Positions 30,848 through 64,000 of a DNA stretch of 64,000 nt are shown in pieces. The stretch is from Gammaproteobacteria bacterium (GTDB lineage: Bacteria; Pseudomonadota; Gammaproteobacteria; JAABTG01), in NCBI GenBank assembly GCA_034522055.1, contig JAXHLS010000006.1, positions 893,643 to 957,642 on the forward strand, written 5' to 3'. The position numbers and the translations under genes are program-made. The notes beneath the pieces were generated by a model, which was given only the letters and a program-made list of their open reading frames with translations, was not told where the DNA came from and ran no database searches. How positions within the stretch are numbered: position 1 is the stretch's first letter; each line of letters opens with the position of its first letter.

Positions 30848-33136
30848 TCAGTCCTCGGGTGGGGGCGGGGCCAGCACATCGCGGCTGCCGTTGGATTCCA
30901 GGGGCCCCACGATACCCGCCTGCTCCATCTGCTCGATCATGCGGGCGGCCCGGTTATAGCCAATCTTGAGGCGCCGCTGCACCCCGGAGATGGAGGCCCG
31001 CCGGGTCTCGGTGACGATACGCACGGCGTCGTCGTAGAGGGGATCGTCCTCGGCATCGCCAGCGGGCTCCAGGCCCGGTATGCCGCCATTGTCGTCGCCG
31101 CCGCCCGCCAACACCTCTTCAACGTAGTCGGGCATACCCATCTTGCGCAGGCGCTCCACCACACGGTGCACCTCCTGGTCCGAGACGAAGGCGCCGTGGA
31201 CGCGGATGGGATCGCCACTGCCGGGTGGCAGGTAGAGCATGTCGCCATGCCCCAGCAGCTGCTCCGCCCCACCCTGATCGAGGATGGTACGGGAATCGAT
31301 CTTGGACGACACCTGGAAGGCGATGCGGGTGGGGATATTGGCCTTGATGAGGCCCGTGAGCACATCCACCGAGGGCCGCTGGGTGGCCAGGATGAGATGG
31401 ATTCCGGCGGCCCGGGCCTTCTGGGCGAGGCGGGCGATGAGTTCCTCCACCTTCTTGCCCACCACCATCATCATGTCGGCCAGCTCGTCGATGACCACCA
31501 CGATGAAGGGCAGATGCTCCAGCCGCGGCACCTCCTGGCCCTCCCCCACCGGCTCCACCAGCGGATCTGCCAGGGGCTGGCCGGCGGCCGCGGCATCGGC
31601 CACCTTGCGGTTGTAACCGCTGATGTTGCGCACCCCGAGGGCCGACATCAGACGATAGCGACGCTCCATCTCCGCCACGCACCAGCGCAGGGCATTGGCA
31701 GCCTCCTTCATGTCCGTGACCACCGGCGCCAGCAGGTGGCCGATGCCCTGGTACACCGACAGTTCCAGCATCTTGGGGTCCACCATGATGAGGCGCACAT
31801 CGTGGGGGGTGGCCTTGAAGATGATGCTGAGGATCATGGCGTTCACCGCCACCGACTTGCCCGAGCCCGTGGTGCCCGCCACCAGCAGATGGGGCATGCG
31901 GGCCAGGTCCACCACCGACGGGTTACCGCCGATGTCCTTGCCGAGCGCCAGGGCCAGGGGCGACTTGAGTTCGTCGTAGGCCTGGGACTTCAGGATCTCC
32001 GACAGCACCACCAACTCCCGGTGCTCGTTGGGTAGTTCCAGTCCCACCACCGACTTGCCGGGGATCACCTCGACGATGCGCACGCTGGTGACGGACAGGG
32101 AGCGGGCCAGGTCCTTGGCCAGGTTGGTGATGCGGTTCACCTTGAAGCCCGGCGCGGGGTCGAGTTCGAAACGTGTCACCACCGGGCCCGGGTGGACTGC
32201 CACCACCTCCACCTCGATGCCGAACTCCCGCAGCTTGAGTTCCACCTGCCGTGACATGGCTTCGAGGCTCTCCCGGGACACCTTGTGGTTGGTGGTGGGC
32301 TTGCCGTCGAGCAGGGACAACGCCGGCAGGGTCTCCTGGGGCGGCGGCTCGAACAGGGAGGCCTGTTTTTCCTTCTCCACCCGCACACTGGGGCCGATGG
32401 CGATGGTGGGCTCGATGCGGGGCGGCTTGCGCTTGACCTCCCTGGCCTTGGCGCTGGCCACCTGCTCCTGGCGCTGTTTCTTCTGCTCTCGGCCCGCGCG
32501 GGCCTCGCGGATCTGGTTGACATAACCCTGCATCCGGGCCAGCCCCAGCAGGGTCAGGCGGCCGGTCTCGTCCATGAGGGTGAGCCAGGAGAAACCGAGG
32601 AGCAGGCTCACGCCGGTGAGAAAAAACGCCAGCAGGATGAGGGTGCTGCCCATGGGGCTCACCAGGGAGGCCAGGCCGAGGCCCACCACGTTGCCGAGGA
32701 TGCCGCCGGCATCCAGCGGCAGGCCGGGGCCATGGAAATGCAGCGAACCGAGGCCGCAACCTGCCGCCAGGGTGAGCAGGAAACCGGCGCCATGGCTAGC
32801 CACCGGATACCAGGCCGACTGGTCCAGGCGATCGCCCTTGTAGGCCACCCAGCCGGCGAAGGCCACCGCCAGGGGAAAGAGGTAGGCCAGATAGCCGAAC
32901 AGGTAGAGGGTGATATCCGCCACCCATGCCCCCACCACGCCGCCGCGGTTGGCGATGGGGCCCATCTCGCCGCTGTAAGACCAGCCGGGATCCGCCGGGT
33001 CGTAGGTGACCAGGGATAACAACAGGTAGACGGCGAGTGCCAGGGCCAGGAACAGCATGCCCTCGCGGAGACCGCGCCCGAGGTGGAGGGGCCAGTTGGA
33101 CACGGTCCGGGCCTTCTTGGTGGTTGCCTGCGCCAA
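30848..33136 (-). CDS. ftsK: DNA translocase FtsK
   Basis: 762 aa. About 180 N-terminal residues hold four or five membrane helices, followed by a short linker rather than the long Pro/Gln linker of E. coli, then the RecA-like motor (Walker [17 protein letters not shown], Walker [16 protein letters not shown]) and a winged-helix gamma domain ([20 protein letters not shown]) that reads KOPS sites. It drives chromosome dimer resolution at the septum. First gene of the ftsK-lolA-rarA-crcB run. The start [14 protein letters not shown] is plausible. Confidence 0.96.
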
Positions 33137-51033: not shown

Positions 51034-51279
51034 ATGTCGACACCGGAAAACATCGAAGCTGTTCGAGTAGTCTCTCGGGAGTTACTGCAGCGGGGACGGT
51101 TAGAGGCGGATCACATTGACGTGTTGATCGAGCTTGCCGACGGCCGTGTCTCTTACAACGAATATGCTCGGTGGATGAGCATGGCCGGAATAAAGCCCGT
51201 GCAAGTTATCGCTGTCGATGAGCCCCGACCGGAGCCCACAGTCATGCAAGTGACCGCGATCGATGTACAGCGCGAGTAG
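51034..51279 (+). CDS. Small hypothetical protein
   Basis: 81 aa, MSTPENIEAVRVVSRELLQR, acidic C-terminus. No good ribosome-binding site lies before ATG 51034; a strong GGAGG lies upstream of an out-of-frame ATG at 51000, so a frameshift near 51000-51034 is possible. It is followed by a strong terminator. No family recognised. Confidence 0.5.
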   Translation: MSTPENIEAVRVVSRELLQRGRLEADHIDVLIELADGRVSYNEYARWMSMAGIKPVQVIAVDEPRPEPTVMQVTAIDVQRE

Positions 51280-51299
51280 CGCCCCCCTGCCCCTATTGA

Positions 51300-51326
51300 G
51301 CCCGGCCCCGTGCCGGGCTTTTTTTT
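51300..51326 (+). terminator. Intrinsic terminator of the element's backbone operon
   Basis: GCCCGGC / GCCGGGC with a CCCGT loop, followed by eight T. It lies 21 bp after the last backbone gene and is the clearest Rho-independent terminator in the window. Confidence 0.88.
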
Positions 51327-51348
51327 GCCCCTTCCCGGGTGACCACGA

Positions 51349-51364
51349 GTCAATAATTATTGAC
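51349..51364. promoter_or_regulatory. Perfect 16-bp palindrome GTCAATAATTATTGAC
   Basis: A perfect, AT-rich inverted repeat in GC-rich DNA, 23 bp after the terminator and directly before a small open frame. It looks like a repressor operator. Confidence 0.45.
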
Positions 51365-51562
51365 GTGCCCGACCTGCCCGCGGGTAAGCGCGCCGCGAAG
51401 CTGGCCGAGCTGGATACGGCCATCGCCGCGAAGGAATCCGAATTGGTGCAACTCCATGAACTGGCTGACGCCTCCGGGATCGTCCTGAAGTCTGACCCCG
51501 CCCTGCCGAAGTCCGCCGCCACCCGCCGCCGCGACGGCAATCTGGTAGATCCTGACGCATAA
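51365..51562 (+). CDS. Small hypothetical protein
   Basis: 65 aa from GTG 51365 (MPDLPAGKRAAKLAELDTAI), helical, charged. A longer reading to 51263 passes through the terminator and is unlikely. No family recognised. Confidence 0.35.
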   Translation: MPDLPAGKRAAKLAELDTAIAAKESELVQLHELADASGIVLKSDPALPKSAATRRRDGNLVDPDA

Positions 51563-51956
51563 CTGCGAGTGACGGAACTGGCCGACTGGCCATCTGGAGG
51601 CCGTGGGCCTGGAGTCTGAAGCCAAGCTTGCAGCCCTCTTTCAGGCCCTGGTAGCCGCCGAGGGCAGTGGCAATGCTTTCCTGCGGTGGCCGGCTGCCCG
51701 CATGCTGGCACATTTCGAAGCGGGTCGCTGCTCTGGTGCCGGGCTAGCGGCGCAGCGCCTACAGGAAGCGCCTCCATCTTCGACAAGCCGCGGCGGCCCT
51801 GGCCCCCGACGCTGGCCGCTGGCCGCTGGCAATAGGCGCGCGGGCGGCTGAGCTGCAGCATCAAGATTTGCCGGTGCCGGACATTCTTCCCATGCTCGGA
51901 GTCAAGCGACACCTGCTTCAGCGAAAACGCGCGTTAAATCAGTCAGAGAAAATCGA
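51563..51956. other. Spacer between backbone and cargo
   Basis: No convincing gene. A GTG frame at 51603-51851 encodes 82 residues that begin well (GLESEAKLAALFQALVAAEG) and end in Pro/Arg/Gly-rich sequence; it may be a decayed gene end. Confidence 0.4.
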
Positions 51957-52955
51957 TCATGATAGGTCCTTTAGGCCTACATTCTTGGCGATCTTGACGG
52001 CAACACGCTTGAAATCCTTGTACGCATCGCTCACTGCGTAAGTATGTGCGCCGAGGGCGCCATCAGCGGGCTTCAGGAAGAACATTGGTTTGCGAGCCTC
52101 CTGAGCGAGAGGCATAAGGCTGCGATAGTCCTTGAGCTTGGCGATACAGTTGGGGTCGGTATCGATTTTGATCTGTTGGTCAGGTTCCTGGTTAAGTACA
52201 GCCCTCATGTAGGTGGATGGGATGCGAGCAATCCAGCGCTCGAAAGCCTTAACGGGTCGGTCAAGCCGAGTGGAGTGTCGCAGCACCATGTAGCCAATGG
52301 GCTCGATATTGCCCCCTGGTAGGCTAAGGTCTGCTGGCGGATTTTCACCCAGTCGCTTAGTCCACCCTTCACGCCACCTACGTACGGCGGGACCTAGATT
52401 TTGCAGACCTTGAAGTGAAAACAGATCCGGCCCCAATGGGATAGCCACAAAGTCCGATGCAATCAGCGAAGCACGGTTGATCGCACCAAGGTTTGGGCCC
52501 AAATCAATCATGATGGCATCAGCGCCGTGTTTTTCCCCAGCTTTCTGTGTCACGCGCCAAAACGCTGACATTATACGGAATGCACGAGCGTCTCCCCCAA
52601 GACACTTCGGCCACACCTCGGACAAATCATCTTCAAAGGTAGATAGCGCCATGTCTCCAAGAATTAGCCCCAATCGATCAGAAATAATTTCAACGTGGGG
52701 ATCAAGGATATCTCCCGTGCCATCTTTGAGTGGCTTGACAGCACCAAAGATCGTTTGCGGATCTCCGTGATTCAACATGACGGCTTCGAGCCGGTCCTCA
52801 TCAAGAAAAGCTGCCGTAAGATTACTTTGGGGATCGAGGTCGGCTGCGATCACGCGTAGGCCATTGTCGGCCAACATCCACGACAAGTGATAGACCATGG
52901 ATGTCTTTCCAACGCCGCCCTTGTTGTTGAAAAACGCGATGACAGGGATGCTCAT
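51957..52955 (-). CDS. ParA-family ATPase
   Basis: 332 aa deviant-Walker ATPase. The signature KGGVGKTS lies at residues 12-19 (FFNNKGGVGKTSMVYHLSWM), Walker A' DLDPQSNLTAAFL at about 40, and DAIMIDLGPNLGAINRASL near 140. There is no ParB gene nearby; instead it overlaps the upstream ATPase gene by 4 bp (ATGA, 52952-52955). That coupling points to a two-protein module rather than plain partition. GC content is below that of the chromosome. Confidence 0.9.
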   Translation of the reverse strand: MSIPVIAFFNNKGGVGKTSMVYHLSWMLADNGLRVIAADLDPQSNLTAAFLDEDRLEAVMLNHGDPQTIFGAVKPLKDGTGDILDPHVEIISDRLGLILGDMALSTFEDDLSEVWPKCLGGDARAFRIMSAFWRVTQKAGEKHGADAIMIDLGPNLGAINRASLIASDFVAIPLGPDLFSLQGLQNLGPAVRRWREGWTKRLGENPPADLSLPGGNIEPIGYMVLRHSTRLDRPVKAFERWIARIPSTYMRAVLNQEPDQQIKIDTDPNCIAKLKDYRSLMPLAQEARKPMFFLKPADGALGAHTYAVSDAYKDFKRVAVKIAKNVGLKDLS

Positions 52956-54145
52956 GGACGCCTCCTTAAAATGACGGCGATGTGGTTATCTTCGACTTGG
53001 AACTCGGGCAACGGACTGCCATTCTTCTCCATCTCTCTCCGAGCCAACGCAATGCCATAGCCGAAGCGTTGCACATAACCCAGTTCTTTCATCACGCCGG
53101 CCAAGTTCGGGTTGCGGTAGTCATTTGCACCGGGCTGACCAAAGTCCTCTTTAGTGACTTGCCCGAAGGGGCCGCCTGGGTTCTGAATCTCAACGCGATC
53201 ATTGAACCAGTAAACGCGGACTGGCGCATTGGTGTTTTCGTAGGTCCTGTGGAGTACCGCATTGCGGACAAGCTGCTGAAGCGCCACTACAGGATAATCA
53301 GGTGTTCGTACTTCCGTGACGCCACTTGTGAAGTCAGCAGATGACTGGATGTTGTTTTTAATCAGGTCCTCGACTTCCTCGAGAAGATCGGGGAGCGGCC
53401 CACGGACCTCACGTTGATTCCTCACGGGGTCGCCGAGATGTTCTCCGTCGATGCGAACGAACTGTATGTAGGCGCATGCAATCCAGTCCGCCGGAGACTT
53501 GCCCACAGTCAGCAATCCGAGCATCGTCGAACAGAGGGGCGGACCGGGATGAGCAAATTTTGCCGCGGCGAGTTGATCTTCTAGGGACCGCTGGTTCTGC
53601 TCAATGACCTCAGTCGAAACGGAGTTCGGAAGATAGGTACGCCTGAAAAGAAAATCGTCAAGTTGATCCAGTCCAGCATCTTGAAAGGGCCGAATATCTG
53701 CTGGGAGATCACGATACCTCCTCTTTTCGTTGAGTCGGCGTTCATCATCCGCGTTTGCAATTCCCTTACGGGGGCCCGAACGAATCCACACCGATCCCTT
53801 GAATCGTACTGGAGGAGACGACGAGGGGTGCACGATTACAACCGCCATGTCATAACCTTTGAGATTTAGTTTCTGGACGTCCAGAGACGGAAACGGAACG
53901 ATGTTTCCGTCGCCCCGCATCGCAGCAAGGTTCAGTAGCAATTGGTCAGTGATCTCTAGCCCTGTCGGTTGTCCATTGTCGCCAACGCCAACGAATAACA
54001 CCCCAGGTTGTTGATGATCAGGAAGATCATTGGCAAAGGCGCATACCGCTTGGCGAAACTTGTCGCCATTGTTTGAGGATTGCGTTCGCTCCGCGCGGTC
54101 AGACTCGATCTCGTCCAGCAGAGCTTCAAGCTGTTCTTTTGTCAT
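52952..54145 (-). CDS. AlbA_2 (Schlafen-like) DNA-binding / HATPase-type protein
   Basis: 397 aa. The N-terminal half is an AlbA_2 domain (FRQAVCAFANDLPDHQQPGV, LFVGVGDNGQPTGLEI); the C-terminal half resembles HATPase_c_4 of the RecG-related putative transcriptional regulators (ALQQLVRNAVLHRTYENTNA, VEIQNPGGPFGQV, RNPNLAGVMKELGYVQRFG). It is the first gene of the pair with ParA. Similar proteins act as regulators or in defence contexts, but the function of this pair is unknown to me. Codon use and lower GC suggest separate acquisition. Confidence 0.85.
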   Translation of the reverse strand: MTKEQLEALLDEIESDRAERTQSSNNGDKFRQAVCAFANDLPDHQQPGVLFVGVGDNGQPTGLEITDQLLLNLAAMRGDGNIVPFPSLDVQKLNLKGYDMAVVIVHPSSSPPVRFKGSVWIRSGPRKGIANADDERRLNEKRRYRDLPADIRPFQDAGLDQLDDFLFRRTYLPNSVSTEVIEQNQRSLEDQLAAAKFAHPGPPLCSTMLGLLTVGKSPADWIACAYIQFVRIDGEHLGDPVRNQREVRGPLPDLLEEVEDLIKNNIQSSADFTSGVTEVRTPDYPVVALQQLVRNAVLHRTYENTNAPVRVYWFNDRVEIQNPGGPFGQVTKEDFGQPGANDYRNPNLAGVMKELGYVQRFGYGIALARREMEKNGSPLPEFQVEDNHIAVILRRRP

Positions 54146-54323
54146 GGCGTGCGTTCAGTTCTCGTTGACGCTGCAAGCATGTGCTGCGGGCTAATCAGCA
54201 CACTGCCCTTGGCTTTGGTTAGAAGGTTGACGCATGGATCCTGAATGCACAGAAGGCCCGGACTGCCGGCCGCTGGCGAAGCGGCACAAGCTGAAGCGGC
54301 CAGAGTAGGCGAGGCGTAAGCGA

Positions 54324-55103
54324 CTAGGCCGCCTCCCGTAACACATCGGCGAACTCGTCCGGCCTAGACCAGCGCGACACAGTGGACAGGCTCTCCACTA
54401 GGCTGAAGTCTTCGTCAGACCAGATGTCGGCAGTGTCGTCAAAGAGTGAGACGAAGTGTAAGGCCTCCGGGCCAGCCGCCAGGTGATTCAAATCGAACCA
54501 TGCTGCTGTGACGTGCTCGACCACAGCCCGGGCCCTTGAGCGATTTGCGGTGCTCAGCACGTAGACCAGGGAGCTGCGGGCCGGCACTCGCACGTGGAAG
54601 TCAACCGTCCAGCCTCTACCGGAGTTACCGGCCAGCTTTTCCCGCGGCTGGAAGTGGAACTGGTGCTCTGATAGGTAATCTGCGACCTCATCGACAATGG
54701 ACTCCACTGCCCGGGTTCTGAAGGTAAACCAGATGTCCGAAACCCGCAGCGACGCTTGGGCAACACGGATGACCACCGCCGCCAAGGAGTCCCCGGGGCG
54801 GCAGCGGGCGAGTAGCATGCCACGGTAGAATTCCACGCCATGGGTCAAACAGGCGTCTTCGATAAGCTTAAGCTGCTTAGGCGAACGGCGCAGGCTGACA
54901 GATTGCATGCGCAGCCATCGTGTGGTTTCTCCCAGATCAGTGACCGTTATGAGGTCATCCTCGATCTTGCAGAAGAGGTCGATGTTGTCGCCATCTGGGA
55001 ATAGGTAAGGCGTACGAATGCGCTGATAGCCCCCCTGCTCCGAACAAGTGAATAGCTCACTGAGATTGGCCTTAAATTCCTGGCATATCATGTGCACGCT
55101 CAT
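54324..55103 (-). CDS. DUF1828 domain protein
   Basis: 259 aa soluble protein. The N-terminal about 100 residues fit DUF1828 (RIRTPYLFPDGDNIDLFCKI, ITVTDLGETTRWL); the C-terminal part resembles DUF1829 (VDEVADYLSEHQFHFQPREK). It overlaps the upstream gene by 4 bp (55100-55103). The 178 bp to the next gene (54146-54323) hold nothing clear. Function unknown; such proteins often sit in mobile elements in two-gene units. Confidence 0.82.
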   Translation of the reverse strand: MSVHMICQEFKANLSELFTCSEQGGYQRIRTPYLFPDGDNIDLFCKIEDDLITVTDLGETTRWLRMQSVSLRRSPKQLKLIEDACLTHGVEFYRGMLLARCRPGDSLAAVVIRVAQASLRVSDIWFTFRTRAVESIVDEVADYLSEHQFHFQPREKLAGNSGRGWTVDFHVRVPARSSLVYVLSTANRSRARAVVEHVTAAWFDLNHLAAGPEALHFVSLFDDTADIWSDEDFSLVESLSTVSRWSRPDEFADVLREAA

Positions 55104-60505: not shown

Positions 60506-61222
60506 ATGGACAGCGACACGAACACCGATTGCGAGGAGCGGATCCTCAAGCGGCTGGCGGCAGCGGGCGCCGACGGCCTGACCACTACGGATCTCAAGCT
60601 CCCGGGCGCCGGCACCATCAAGGGCAAGGCCTGCCGCGCCGTGCTGAGGCGGCTGCTGAAGGACAGCGCGGTGGGCAACCTGGGTTCACCCCAGCGGCCC
60701 CGCTACGTGGTGCCGGAGCACTTCAAGCCCCTGGAACTGACCTACGATCACCTCGAGTCCCGCAGCCGCGAGTCGGGGGTGCGCCTGCTTTCCAAGAGCG
60801 CCCTGGCCAAAGGGTTGAAGGGGGCAGGCCTGAAGAAGGTGGACGAGGCCCTGAAGCTGCTGGTGGCGGAGGGCGTCCTGCTGCGCCTCAAGTGGGCCAA
60901 CAGCACCTTATATCTCCACGCGTCCACCCTGCCCGCCGCCCCATCGGCGCCGCGGGCCGCGGACAAGCCGGATCCGGCCGCCATCCACCGCGCCTACCGC
61001 GAGGCGGTGAACGCCTTCGGCTACCCGGATGTGTTGATCCACGAGGTGTATCTACGCCTCGGCGGCGAGCTGGAGGCCCTCAAGGGGGCCCTGCTGGAGG
61101 CCTGCCGCAGCGGCCGCGCCGTGGCCAGCATGGGCGACTGGTCCCTGTCCTCACCCGAGGAACGAGCCGCCGCCCTCTACATCGACGGCCATCCCCATCT
61201 GCGGATCCGGCTCATGGATTGA
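60506..61222 (+). CDS. Unrecognised protein with tandem winged-helix-like segments
   Basis: 238 aa soluble protein from ATG 60506. Residues about 5-75 (ERILKRLAAAGADGLTTTDL, KACRAVLRRLLKDSAVGNLG) and about 85-150 (LSKSALAKGLKGAGLKKVDE, ALKLLVAEGVLLRLK) each look like a winged helix; the C-terminal third (RAYREAVNAFGYPDVLIHEV) is helical. No family recognised. It is 6 bp before the ATPase gene, so it is part of that operon, perhaps its DNA-binding component. Confidence 0.75.
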   Translation: MDSDTNTDCEERILKRLAAAGADGLTTTDLKLPGAGTIKGKACRAVLRRLLKDSAVGNLGSPQRPRYVVPEHFKPLELTYDHLESRSRESGVRLLSKSALAKGLKGAGLKKVDEALKLLVAEGVLLRLKWANSTLYLHASTLPAAPSAPRAADKPDPAAIHRAYREAVNAFGYPDVLIHEVYLRLGGELEALKGALLEACRSGRAVASMGDWSLSSPEERAAALYIDGHPHLRIRLMD

Positions 61223-61228
61223 TCGCGG

Positions 61229-63289
61229 GTGACGGACCTCCAGGAGCCCTTCATCGACCCCTTCGCGGACGATATCGTCAACGATCCGCGGGGGGTGGAC
61301 TATTCGGTGCCCGGCCTCAATGAGGCCGCGGCCAATAGCGTCATTGCTGCCATCGATGCCCTGCGCCATGACCCGCGCCCGCGCATTCATACCCGCTCGC
61401 CCAAGGCCCTGCTGGTGCTCTCCCCGCGCGCCGGCTTCGGCAAGTCCCACCTCATCGGCACCCTGTTCAAGCGCCTGAGCGGCCGCGCCACCCTGGTGAA
61501 CATCCGGCCCTTCGAGGACACCGACACGCGCTGGAAGTCCATCCTCATGCGCCTGGTGCAGGAGCTGACCTTTCCCGACCGCCATACCGCCGCCGGCGAC
61601 GCCACCGGGGCCGATCAACTGGAACTCTTCGCCCACGGCGCCCTGAGCCAGGTGGTGGCCGATATGCTCGAGGCCATCGGCGGCAACGCCCGGACCATCG
61701 CCGTCCTGCGCCGCCCGGCCTCGGAGCTCGTCGCCCTCCGGGACCATGGGCCCTGGCTCGGCTATCTGCGCCGGAACATGGACAACCGCGGCTGGCTCGG
61801 CCAGGTGGCGCAACGCCTCGCCCGCAGCGGAATGCGCCTCAACGCCGCCCCGGTGACCTGGCTCAGGGTGTTGTACCGCTATGCCTACGGCGACGACTGG
61901 GAGCTCCGGCAGGCCTGCCTGGACTGGCTCCAGTGCGAGCCCATCGACGAGGAACTGGCCGACGCTATCGGCATCAAGGCCGCGGACCGGGGACGCGTGG
62001 ATGCAAGCGCCGGCCACTTGAACGATAGGGCCAAGGCGCGGGTCCTGGACCTGTGCCGGCTGGCGGGTTTCTATCGCCCCTTCCTCATCTGCTTCGACCA
62101 GACCGAGACCTACGGCAAGTCGCCGGAGCTGGCGCGGGCCCTGGGCACGGTGATAACGGACCTCACCGACGAGGCCGTCAACCAGCTCACCCTGCTCACC
62201 GCCAACGTGGACCCCTGGGAGAAGCGCCTCCGCTTGCACTGGGAGGAAGCGAGCCGCGACCGCCTCGCCATGCCTTACCTGTTCCTGGAGGGCGTCACCA
62301 TCCCCCAGGCGCGGGAGCTGGCGGCCCACCGCCTCGCCGTCTTCGACCTGCCCGAGGCGAGGCGCCGGGCCTTCTGGGGCGACGGCCGATGGCTCGAAGG
62401 CCTGTCCCGCGACAACCCCCAGATGAGCGTGCGCATGTTCCTCAACGCCTGCTCCCGGCGCTGGCACCACGGGGCCGATGCCGCCGCGCCGGACCCGGAT
62501 GCCGGCCGGGTGCCGCTGCAGACCCTATTCGAACGCTACGTGGACGAGGTGTCCGCCAAGCCCAGACGCCTGGTGTACGACCGCGACGCCTTCTATTGGC
62601 TGGTGAACGAGCTGGCCCGTGGAGTGGCGGGGATAAGCGTGGACAGGGTGAGGGCAAAATCCGGCGAGCAGCTGCCACGCTGGCGCCATGACGAGACCCG
62701 GTTCGTGTTCGGCTTCGAGTCCGGCAACCACTGGAAACGCTGGCACACCATCGCCCGCACGGCCATGGCGGGCGCCGGCCGACACCGCGTGCTGGTGTAC
62801 CCGCGCACGCCGGAACTGCCACGGATCCCCAAGCCTACCTGGAAGGTGGCGCAGGCCGACATCGAGCAGGCCAGGCGCTCGTCACTCCTGATACTGGAGC
62901 TGGATCGCCGCGTGCTGGTGCGTCTCTATGCCGCCCACGAGTTCCACGCCGATGCCCTGCAGGGTGACATCGAATGGTCTCCCGAAGAGGTGGCCGACTT
63001 CCTGCGCCACGCCCTGGATGATTTCTGGCAGTCCATCCTCGGCTGGCCACGGCAGGCGCCTGGGGAGGCGCCGCAACCGGAGTCCCCGCCACCGCCCACC
63101 GGCGAGCTGCAGCGCGCGCTGGTGAACATCATGCGGGCGAAGAAGTTCCTCAGTCTCGAAGAGGTCATCGAACGCCTGCCCGGTGCCCCGGACCGCGAGG
63201 CGGTGCTGGGGATCTGCGGCGAGACCGCCCGCATCAAGGTCCACACCCATCCCAACATGACGGTGCTGCAATGGCAGAGCGCAGGCTGA
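61229..63289 (+). CDS. Large P-loop ATPase of unknown family
   Basis: 686 aa, GTG start at 61229. A Walker A-like loop (LVLSPRAGFGKSHLIGTLFK, about residue 60) has proline where A/G is usual; Walker B-like PFLICFDQTETYGKSPELAR lies near 285. The rest is helical with SVRMFLNACSRRWH and a C-terminal winged-helix-like end (RAKKFLSLEEVIERLPGAPD). It overlaps the nuclease gene by 19 bp. The layout recalls STAND or ORC-like ATPases, but no named family was recognised. It may load or control the nuclease. Confidence 0.75.
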   Translation: MTDLQEPFIDPFADDIVNDPRGVDYSVPGLNEAAANSVIAAIDALRHDPRPRIHTRSPKALLVLSPRAGFGKSHLIGTLFKRLSGRATLVNIRPFEDTDTRWKSILMRLVQELTFPDRHTAAGDATGADQLELFAHGALSQVVADMLEAIGGNARTIAVLRRPASELVALRDHGPWLGYLRRNMDNRGWLGQVAQRLARSGMRLNAAPVTWLRVLYRYAYGDDWELRQACLDWLQCEPIDEELADAIGIKAADRGRVDASAGHLNDRAKARVLDLCRLAGFYRPFLICFDQTETYGKSPELARALGTVITDLTDEAVNQLTLLTANVDPWEKRLRLHWEEASRDRLAMPYLFLEGVTIPQARELAAHRLAVFDLPEARRRAFWGDGRWLEGLSRDNPQMSVRMFLNACSRRWHHGADAAAPDPDAGRVPLQTLFERYVDEVSAKPRRLVYDRDAFYWLVNELARGVAGISVDRVRAKSGEQLPRWRHDETRFVFGFESGNHWKRWHTIARTAMAGAGRHRVLVYPRTPELPRIPKPTWKVAQADIEQARRSSLLILELDRRVLVRLYAAHEFHADALQGDIEWSPEEVADFLRHALDDFWQSILGWPRQAPGEAPQPESPPPPTGELQRALVNIMRAKKFLSLEEVIERLPGAPDREAVLGICGETARIKVHTHPNMTVLQWQSAG

Positions 63290-64000
63290 CTGTCACCCAG
63301 CTCAAGCACGCCGTACTGGACCCCCAATGGCGGGCCCGCTGGCTGGCCGGCGGCCAACCACCCACCCTGACCTTCCCGCCCCCCGGCAGCGGCCCGCCGG
63401 TGAAGGGCGCCCTGTTCCACCGCTTGGCGGAGGACTTCACCCACTGGCTGTGCCACGGGCGCGCCCGCAAGACGGCCCAGGGACTCGCCACCGCCGAGGC
63501 CCTGTGGCACGAGTTCTACCGCCGTTTCGCCGAGGCGCGCCTCGGCGAGCTGGCGGAGGCGGGCCAGGTGGAATCCGCCCATCACCTGAGCGCCTGCCTG
63601 CGGGTCTTCTGCACCCGCCTGGCCGAACTGCGCGCCACCATCGAGGGCTTCTCCCACTGGCAGGACCTGTTCCTCGGCGAGGAGCTGGCAGTGGACTGCA
63701 CGGACATCGCCGGCACCGGCCTGTGCGTCTCCGGCCGGGTGGATGCCGTGCGCCGCGACCCCAGCCACGGCGTGGTGGTGGTGGACTACAAGCTCTCCAG
63801 AGGTGCCGAGACCAAGCACGACCTGGTGCAACTGGCCATCTATGGCCACCTGCTGGAGGCCAGCCGGCCGGGGCTCGATTTCACCGGCCTGCTGGAATAC
63901 TACGAGCCCGAGCTTACGGTGCTGGAGGTGAGCCCCGCCGATCTGCGGGACCTGTTCGGCCAGATGGTGCTGCCGGTGGCCGCCGAGCTGGGACGCCCGC
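63271..64000 (+). CDS. PD-(D/E)XK nuclease, RecB/Cas4-like (3' end beyond window)
   Basis: At least 243 aa, cut by the window edge. The N-terminal LFHRLAEDFTHWLCHG, then SGRVDAVRRDP, VVVVDYKLSRGAE and LVQLAIYGHLLEASR reproduce the H, D, D-x-K and Q-x-x-x-Y pattern of RecB-family exonucleases. It overlaps the ATPase gene by 19 bp. It may continue into further domains outside the window. Cas4 or AddB/RecB-like roles in DNA end processing are possible; no cas genes are visible. Confidence 0.85.
   Translation, partial: MAERRLTVTQLKHAVLDPQWRARWLAGGQPPTLTFPPPGSGPPVKGALFHRLAEDFTHWLCHGRARKTAQGLATAEALWHEFYRRFAEARLGELAEAGQVESAHHLSACLRVFCTRLAELRATIEGFSHWQDLFLGEELAVDCTDIAGTGLCVSGRVDAVRRDPSHGVVVVDYKLSRGAETKHDLVQLAIYGHLLEASRPGLDFTGLLEYYEPELTVLEVSPADLRDLFGQMVLPVAAELGRP

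What the first reader, a model, noticed from the sequence alone, without database searches (positions are those of the whole stretch)
60506..64000. Unrecognised operon: winged-helix protein, P-loop ATPase and RecB-like nuclease
Three overlapping or abutting plus-strand genes combine DNA-binding segments, a 686-aa ATPase that I cannot assign and a PD-(D/E)XK nuclease. An ATPase coupled to a nuclease is the pattern of many defence and DNA-repair systems. I could not match it to BREX, Dnd, Wadjet, Zorya, Gabija or Druantia by its visible motifs.
Basis: partly seen in the sequence, partly recalled or inferred. Interest (0 to 1): 0.8.

Follow-up and report, generated by a model that had tools for sequence, protein, structure and literature searches.

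The report
FtsK-motor nuclease operon with ORC-like ATPase
Three adjacent bacterial genes encode a DNA-binding protein, an ATPase resembling replication-origin loaders, and a DNA-pumping motor fused to a DNA-cutting enzyme; the set recurs as a unit in distant bacteria and best fits a predicted but still untested class of systems that seize and cut invading DNA.

Summary
The operon is real but the window cuts it. Extended into the genome, gene 3 is 625 aa (63271-65148): a RecB/Cas4-type PD-(D/E)XK nuclease fused to FtsK-alpha and a soluble FtsK/SpoIIIE dsDNA motor. Gene 1 (238 aa) models as three winged helices. The "unassignable" 686-aa ATPase models as an ORC/Cdc6-clade AAA+ protein with an extra alpha/beta domain and a C-terminal wHTH-like end. 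Nine complete A-B-C operons, including this one, occur in three phyla with the same order and B/C overlap; A, B and C diverge in parallel. Their motors form one lineage apart from chromosomal FtsKs, and eight of the eleven genomes checked showed a separate FtsK. Flanking genes are not shared, so SbcCD/SNF2 next door are incidental. The architecture matches the ORC/CDC6-coupled "HerA/FtsK capture systems" predicted by Rakesh, Aravind and Krishnan (NAR 2024), a class for which I found no experimental test. Best reading: ORC/wHTH subunits place the FtsK-nuclease ring on foreign DNA, which is pumped and cut. The domains are established; the target and the defence role are inferred. New member of a known, predicted kind; PADLOC and NCBIfam have no model for genes 1 and 2.

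The parts
60506..61222 (+). Gene A: 238-aa protein of three winged-helix domains (residues about 1-71, 74-143, 153-238)
   Evidence: AF2 model mean pLDDT 91; each third matches winged-helix structures at Z about 8 with 2-3.5 A rmsd; conserved in 10 loci
61229..63289 (+). Gene B: 686-aa ORC/Cdc6-clade AAA+ ATPase
   Evidence: AF2 model pLDDT 85, pTM 0.81; VIA Z 13.9 to Drosophila ORC chain 7jgr_G, 13.7 to TnsC, 13.1 to Cdc6 1fnn; invariant GKSH and FDQTE
61244..62506 (+). B, AAA+ core (residues 6-426)
   Evidence: VIA-aligned range 3-426; coordinates
62507..63052 (+). B, middle alpha/beta domain (residues 427-608), proposed inactive REase-like insert
   Evidence: AF2 order H-H-E-E-E-H-E-H-E-H; no (D/E)xK motif conserved; no sequence match
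63092..63280 (+). B, C-terminal winged-helix-like domain (residues 622-684)
   Evidence: AF2 order H624-638 E640-642 H643-649 H656-665 E669-674 E677-682
63271..64000 (+). Gene C, first 243 of 625 aa (gene continues to 65148 beyond the window): N-terminal PD-(D/E)XK nuclease; FtsK-alpha and FtsK/SpoIIIE motor lie outside the window
   Evidence: L003:4914-6791 = window 63271-65148; Pfam PDDEXK_1 32-213, FtsK_alpha 277-352, FtsK_SpoIIIE 367-550
63364..63909 (+). C, nuclease domain with RecB-type motifs GRVDAV (D158), DYK (D172/K174), QLAIY (Q187, Y191)
   Evidence: D158, K174, Q187 and Y191 invariant in 8 homologues, position 172 D or E; profile aligns to RecB-type nuclease of mycobacterial UvrD/Rep-family helicase 6ppu at E 0.007

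Best explanation
A three-subunit DNA-capturing nuclease. A (triple winged helix) and B (ORC/Cdc6-type AAA+ ATPase) bind and mark or encircle a DNA site and load C. C forms an FtsK-type ring that pumps double-stranded DNA while its N-terminal RecB-type nuclease domains, which take the place of FtsK's membrane domain, cut it. The likeliest role is restriction of invading DNA (plasmid, conjugating element or phage). Shown here: domain make-up, operon conservation, parallel divergence, separateness from the chromosomal FtsK. Inferred: ring assembly, loading, cutting, the target and the defence role.
For: C is nuclease plus FtsK-alpha plus FtsK motor, with Walker A GxxGxGKSE, Walker B DE and the nuclease motifs conserved and no membrane segment, unlike the host's own FtsK in the same window. 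B models as ORC/Cdc6/TnsC clade, A as three winged helices. Complete A-B-C operons in 9 loci from Pseudomonadota, Thermodesulfobacteriota and Verrucomicrobiota. A/B/C pairwise identities correlate at r 0.84-0.94, 0 of 5000 Mantel permutations as high. In G206, B is fused directly to the FtsK motor, linking B and motor physically. The trio motors form one group against chromosomal FtsKs (99/98). Distribution is patchy: 2 of 144 relatives and 7 of 398 phylum members with any match, most weak, own included. Same domain set as the predicted ORC/CDC6 HerA/FtsK capture systems (PMC10853773). HerA-DUF4297 shows that a HerA ring plus a nuclease can act as an anti-phage dsDNA nuclease (PMC11291478).
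Against: No experiment. Neighbours are mostly housekeeping genes, not defence islands. No modification enzyme or other self/non-self mark accompanies the trio. The middle domain of B could not be shown to be a REase fold by sequence and was not folded alone. G206 lacks a nuclease in this gene set, so not every version can cut by itself.
Confidence: 0.62

Rival explanations
1. A DNA-repair or end-resection machine, the bacterial analogue of archaeal HerA-NurA with Mre11-Rad50: B and A bring C to broken ends and C resects them, perhaps with the SbcC/SbcD-like pair encoded just downstream.
For: SbcC-like 877 aa and SbcD-like 381 aa genes lie convergently downstream. HerA-NurA is a motor-nuclease used in end resection (PMC12977600, abstract). 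The nuclease is of RecB/Cas4 type.
Against: No SbcCD or SNF2 gene next to any other copy of the trio. Distribution is sporadic, unlike a repair housekeeping function.
Confidence: 0.17
2. Machinery belonging to a mobile element: ORC-like initiator, wHTH and FtsK-like pump used for its own replication, transfer or exclusion of rivals.
For: ORC/Cdc6 and FtsK/HerA proteins are common in mobile elements; PMC10853773 calls these neighbourhoods mobile. Patchy distribution; transposase genes sit near some copies.
Against: No integrase, relaxase or replication gene recurs next to the trio. No match to B in 50,697 phage records, and only a truncated fragment flanked by IS6 transposase genes in 72,556 plasmids. 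No viral contig matched the patterns.
Confidence: 0.1
3. A second chromosome-segregation or dimer-resolution FtsK variant with a housekeeping role.
For: FtsK-alpha and motor are of cellular FtsK type.
Against: A separate chromosomal FtsK was found in eight of the eleven genomes searched; C lacks membrane segments and no FtsK gamma domain was reported; it carries a nuclease.
Confidence: 0.05

Closest known systems
ORC/CDC6-coupled HerA/FtsK capture systems (Rakesh, Aravind, Krishnan, NAR 2024, PMC10853773)
   Same: ORC/CDC6 AAA+ with an extra domain before a C-terminal wHTH, a nuclease, FtsK with FtsK-alpha captured from cellular FtsK, and a separate multi-wHTH protein
   Different: The paper names two REase families without my being able to check that this Cas4/RecB-like one is among them (figures and supplements not held). 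The iREase nature of B's middle domain is unproven here.
DUF4297-HerA anti-phage complex (PMC11291478)
   Same: Ring translocase of the HerA/FtsK superfamily coupled to a dsDNA nuclease
   Different: Two separate proteins, HerA not FtsK type, no ORC-like ATPase and no triple wHTH subunit
DndFGH / SspFGH restriction modules
   Same: wHTH triad protein (DndG) plus nuclease and FtsK-type motor (DndH/SspH)
   Different: PADLOC SspH models match only C's motor part and match the chromosomal FtsK equally well; no DndF or DndG model matches A or B
Archaeal HerA-NurA
   Same: Hexameric pump plus nuclease
   Different: Separate genes, different nuclease, no ORC-like partner in the operon (own knowledge of the family)

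Membership tests
ORC/CDC6-coupled HerA/FtsK capture system | ORC/CDC6-family AAA+ ATPase | tested here: met
   VIA Z 13.9 (239 residues, 3.6 A) to ORC 7jgr_G, 13.1 to Cdc6 1fnn, 13.7 to TnsC; Foldseek alone was weak (best E 2.6e-3, also ORC1)
ORC/CDC6-coupled HerA/FtsK capture system | Inactive REase inserted between AAA+ core and C-terminal wHTH | tested here: inconclusive
   An alpha/beta domain without a conserved (D/E)xK sits exactly there, but no sequence search confirms the fold
ORC/CDC6-coupled HerA/FtsK capture system | C-terminal wHTH in the ATPase | tested here: inconclusive
   Secondary-structure order of residues 624-682 is that of a wHTH; not folded or searched alone
ORC/CDC6-coupled HerA/FtsK capture system | Active REase-fold nuclease | tested here: met
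   PDDEXK_1 E 1e-11 with RecB-type catalytic motifs conserved in 8 homologues; activity itself not tested
ORC/CDC6-coupled HerA/FtsK capture system | Nuclease belongs to one of the two REase families named in the paper | not testable with these tools
   Figures and supplementary data not held
ORC/CDC6-coupled HerA/FtsK capture system | HerA/FtsK motor, one set with FtsK-alpha | tested here: met
   FtsK_SpoIIIE E 1e-38 and FtsK_alpha E 1e-9
[quoted passage not shown]
   Three winged helices in A
ORC/CDC6-coupled HerA/FtsK capture system | Anti-invader function | not testable with these tools
   Predicted in the paper, no experiment found
DndFGH | DndH multidomain core and DndF kinase-like subunit | tested here: not met
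   C is 625 aa with nuclease and FtsK only; no Dnd model hits A or B
BREX | BrxC/PglY, PglZ and other BREX proteins | tested here: not met
   No BREX model matches A, B or C; no PglZ-like gene among the genes read next door
Wadjet | SMC-type JetC with JetA, JetB and TOPRIM JetD | tested here: not met
   No Jet model matches A, B or C
DUF4297-HerA | DUF4297 nuclease with HerA | tested here: not met
   C is FtsK type with a PDDEXK_1/Cas4-like nuclease

The most novel reading that the evidence does not exclude
An ORC/Cdc6-like ATPase with a triple-winged-helix partner acts as a dedicated loader that places an extra, soluble FtsK ring armed with RecB-type nucleases on foreign DNA: a bacterial origin-loader logic reused to destroy invading replicons, in a distinct family with its own conserved three-gene form.
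Probability: 0.4. Interest if true: 0.65.

Novelty: new member of a known kind. Interest (0 to 1): 0.42.

Why it matters
It gives a compact, complete three-gene example (about 4.6 kb) of a predicted class for which I found no experimental test. It could test whether ORC-like ATPases load FtsK-type pumps as restriction machines. Genes A and B have no model in Pfam (above cut-off), NCBIfam or PADLOC, so such loci are currently invisible to defence annotation.

Tried and rejected
Named systems: no PADLOC, NCBIfam or Pfam assignment for A or B. SspH and mad8 hits of C come from the motor alone and appear equally for chromosomal FtsK. Cooperation with the downstream SbcCD/SNF2 genes was considered and dropped because no other locus has them. 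The idea that B's middle domain is homologous to C's nuclease found no profile support (probability 0.2%). Phage and viral-contig searches were empty. The plasmid search gave only a fragment flanked by IS6 transposase genes in Methylosinus. A pooled PADLOC scan of 56 flanking proteins showed no recurrent defence partner; the two-member hits are SNF2-helicase models, most likely the two halves of this genome's own broken SNF2 gene; no background rate was measured, so enrichment remains untested. Foldseek alone gave weak hits for B, none at E <= 0.001.

Full report
What is there. The window lies at G000:C6:893643-957642 of a 5.14-Mb, 7-contig genome. I took the DNA beyond position 64000 (L003; L003 position = window position minus 58357). 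Three plus-strand genes follow each other: A 60506-61222 (238 aa), B 61229-63289 (686 aa), C 63271-65148 (625 aa); B and C overlap by 19 nt.

Gene C. Pfam finds PDDEXK_1 (32-213, E 1e-11), FtsK_alpha (277-352, E 1e-9) and FtsK_SpoIIIE (367-550, E 1e-38). phmmer against the PDB matches the FtsK motor at E 3e-59. In eight homologues the nuclease motifs D158, (D/E)172-Y-K174, Q187 and Y191, and the motor's Walker motifs, are conserved. The nuclease profile aligns weakly to the RecB-type nuclease of mycobacterial UvrD/Rep-family helicases (E 0.007). Hydropathy shows no membrane segment, whereas the host's own FtsK, encoded in the same window at 30848-33136 (minus strand), has a strongly hydrophobic N-terminus. 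C is thus a soluble FtsK in which a nuclease stands where the membrane domain would be.

Gene B. Sequence libraries are almost silent (AAA_16 at E 0.009, below cut-off). The AF2 model (pLDDT 85, pTM 0.81) matches ORC/Cdc6-clade proteins over residues 3-426: Z 13.9 to ORC 7jgr_G, 13.7 to TnsC 7mcs, 13.1 to Cdc6 1fnn. Foldseek by itself was weak, with ORC1, Cdc6 and ORC at ranks 1-3 but none at E <= 0.001. After the AAA+ core come an alpha/beta domain (427-608) and a wHTH-like C-terminus (622-684). The middle domain has no conserved (D/E)xK motif and could not be linked to any family by sequence.

Gene A. The model (pLDDT 91) is three winged helices; each third matches winged-helix structures at Z about 8.

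Conservation. One scan of 84,980 species genomes with the nuclease/FtsK-alpha alignment gave 10 loci; the patterns make this a lower bound. Complete A-B-C operons: the window, L023 (Gammaproteobacteria), L024 (Thiotrichales), L026, L027, L028 and L030 (Thermodesulfobacteriota), L029 (Mariprofundaceae) and L032 (Verrucomicrobiota). Pairwise identities of A, B and C correlate at 0.84-0.94 with no Mantel permutation of 5000 as high, so the three travel together. In G206 the nuclease part is missing and B is fused to the FtsK motor, with A upstream. Among 144 relatives two genomes match B, own included; among 398 of the phylum seven, most of them weak; four of 297 genomes of the L026 host's phylum have a match at 1e-20, three of them distant.

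Origin of the motor. In an ML tree of 21 motors the 12 operon motors are one side of a branch (99/98) against 9 non-operon FtsKs from the same genomes. The tree warns of long branches (L045_C2, L072, L015), so the outer placements are unsure. A non-operon FtsK was found in eight of the eleven genomes searched, so C is an extra copy rather than a replacement; for three draft genomes none was found by this search.

A wider family. Divergent relatives of B align over nearly the whole length, middle domain included (hhalign 100%, E 3.5e-49), and their wHTH neighbours align to A (93%, E 3e-7). One of them (L045, in the same genome as L027) is a second full trio with a Cas4-like FtsK protein. In other loci the ORC-like/wHTH pair stands without an adjacent FtsK.

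Surroundings. The genes downstream here, SbcC-like, SbcD-like and an SNF2 helicase interrupted by a transposase, are not next to any other copy. Flanks elsewhere are mostly housekeeping genes; a pooled PADLOC scan of 56 flanking proteins found no recurrent partner. This is a qualitative look, not an enrichment test.

What it is. PMC10853773 predicts HerA/FtsK capture systems in which an ORC/CDC6 ATPase with an inactive REase before its C-terminal wHTH, an active REase, an FtsK (one set with FtsK-alpha, captured from cellular FtsK) and often a multi-wHTH protein act together against invading DNA. The trio meets the features that I could test; the iREase is unproven and the identity of the nuclease family within that paper could not be checked. 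PMC12839542 restates the class. I found no experimental test of it in the held literature.

Mechanism. Shown: domains, intact motifs, operon unity, separate motor lineage. Inferred: A and B bind a DNA site and load C; C pumps dsDNA and cuts it; the substrate is invading DNA. The B-FtsK fusion in G206 supports direct contact between B and the motor. DUF4297-HerA shows that a HerA-family ring with a nuclease can defend against phage (PMC11291478). The strongest rival is end resection/repair; sporadic distribution and lack of a constant repair partner speak against it.

Noticed in passing
L003:11632-16404 (window 69989-74761, beyond the end): An SNF2-family helicase gene appears split into two ORFs by a DDE transposase gene (L003:13272-14774, plus strand).
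   Followed up: no
L003:7116-10897 (window 65473-69254, beyond the end): SbcC-like (877 aa) and SbcD-like (381 aa) genes converge on the operon; not conserved at other copies.
   Followed up: partly
L045:3513-8359: A second, divergent A-B-C trio (252/708/661 aa, Cas4-like nuclease plus FtsK) in the same genome as L027.
   Followed up: partly
L048:772-4400: An ORC-like/wHTH pair without an adjacent FtsK is followed by a caspase-domain protein with a peptidoglycan-binding domain.
   Followed up: no
G172-G325 (family f179, genus g242): The divergent ORC-like ATPase occurs in about ten genomes of one genus, far above its rate elsewhere in the phylum sample.
   Followed up: no
L017:860-6812: A decayed variant: RecD-like helicase, 315-aa protein, ORC-like ATPase, and a truncated FtsK-alpha protein.
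   Followed up: partly
L050:996-3878: A B homologue runs on into a STAS/HATPase-like region in one frame; fusion or assembly artefact.
   Followed up: no
window 51100-55103: Minus-strand cluster with a Schlafen AlbA_2/RecG-C protein, a ParA-like ATPase and a DUF1828 protein.
   Followed up: no
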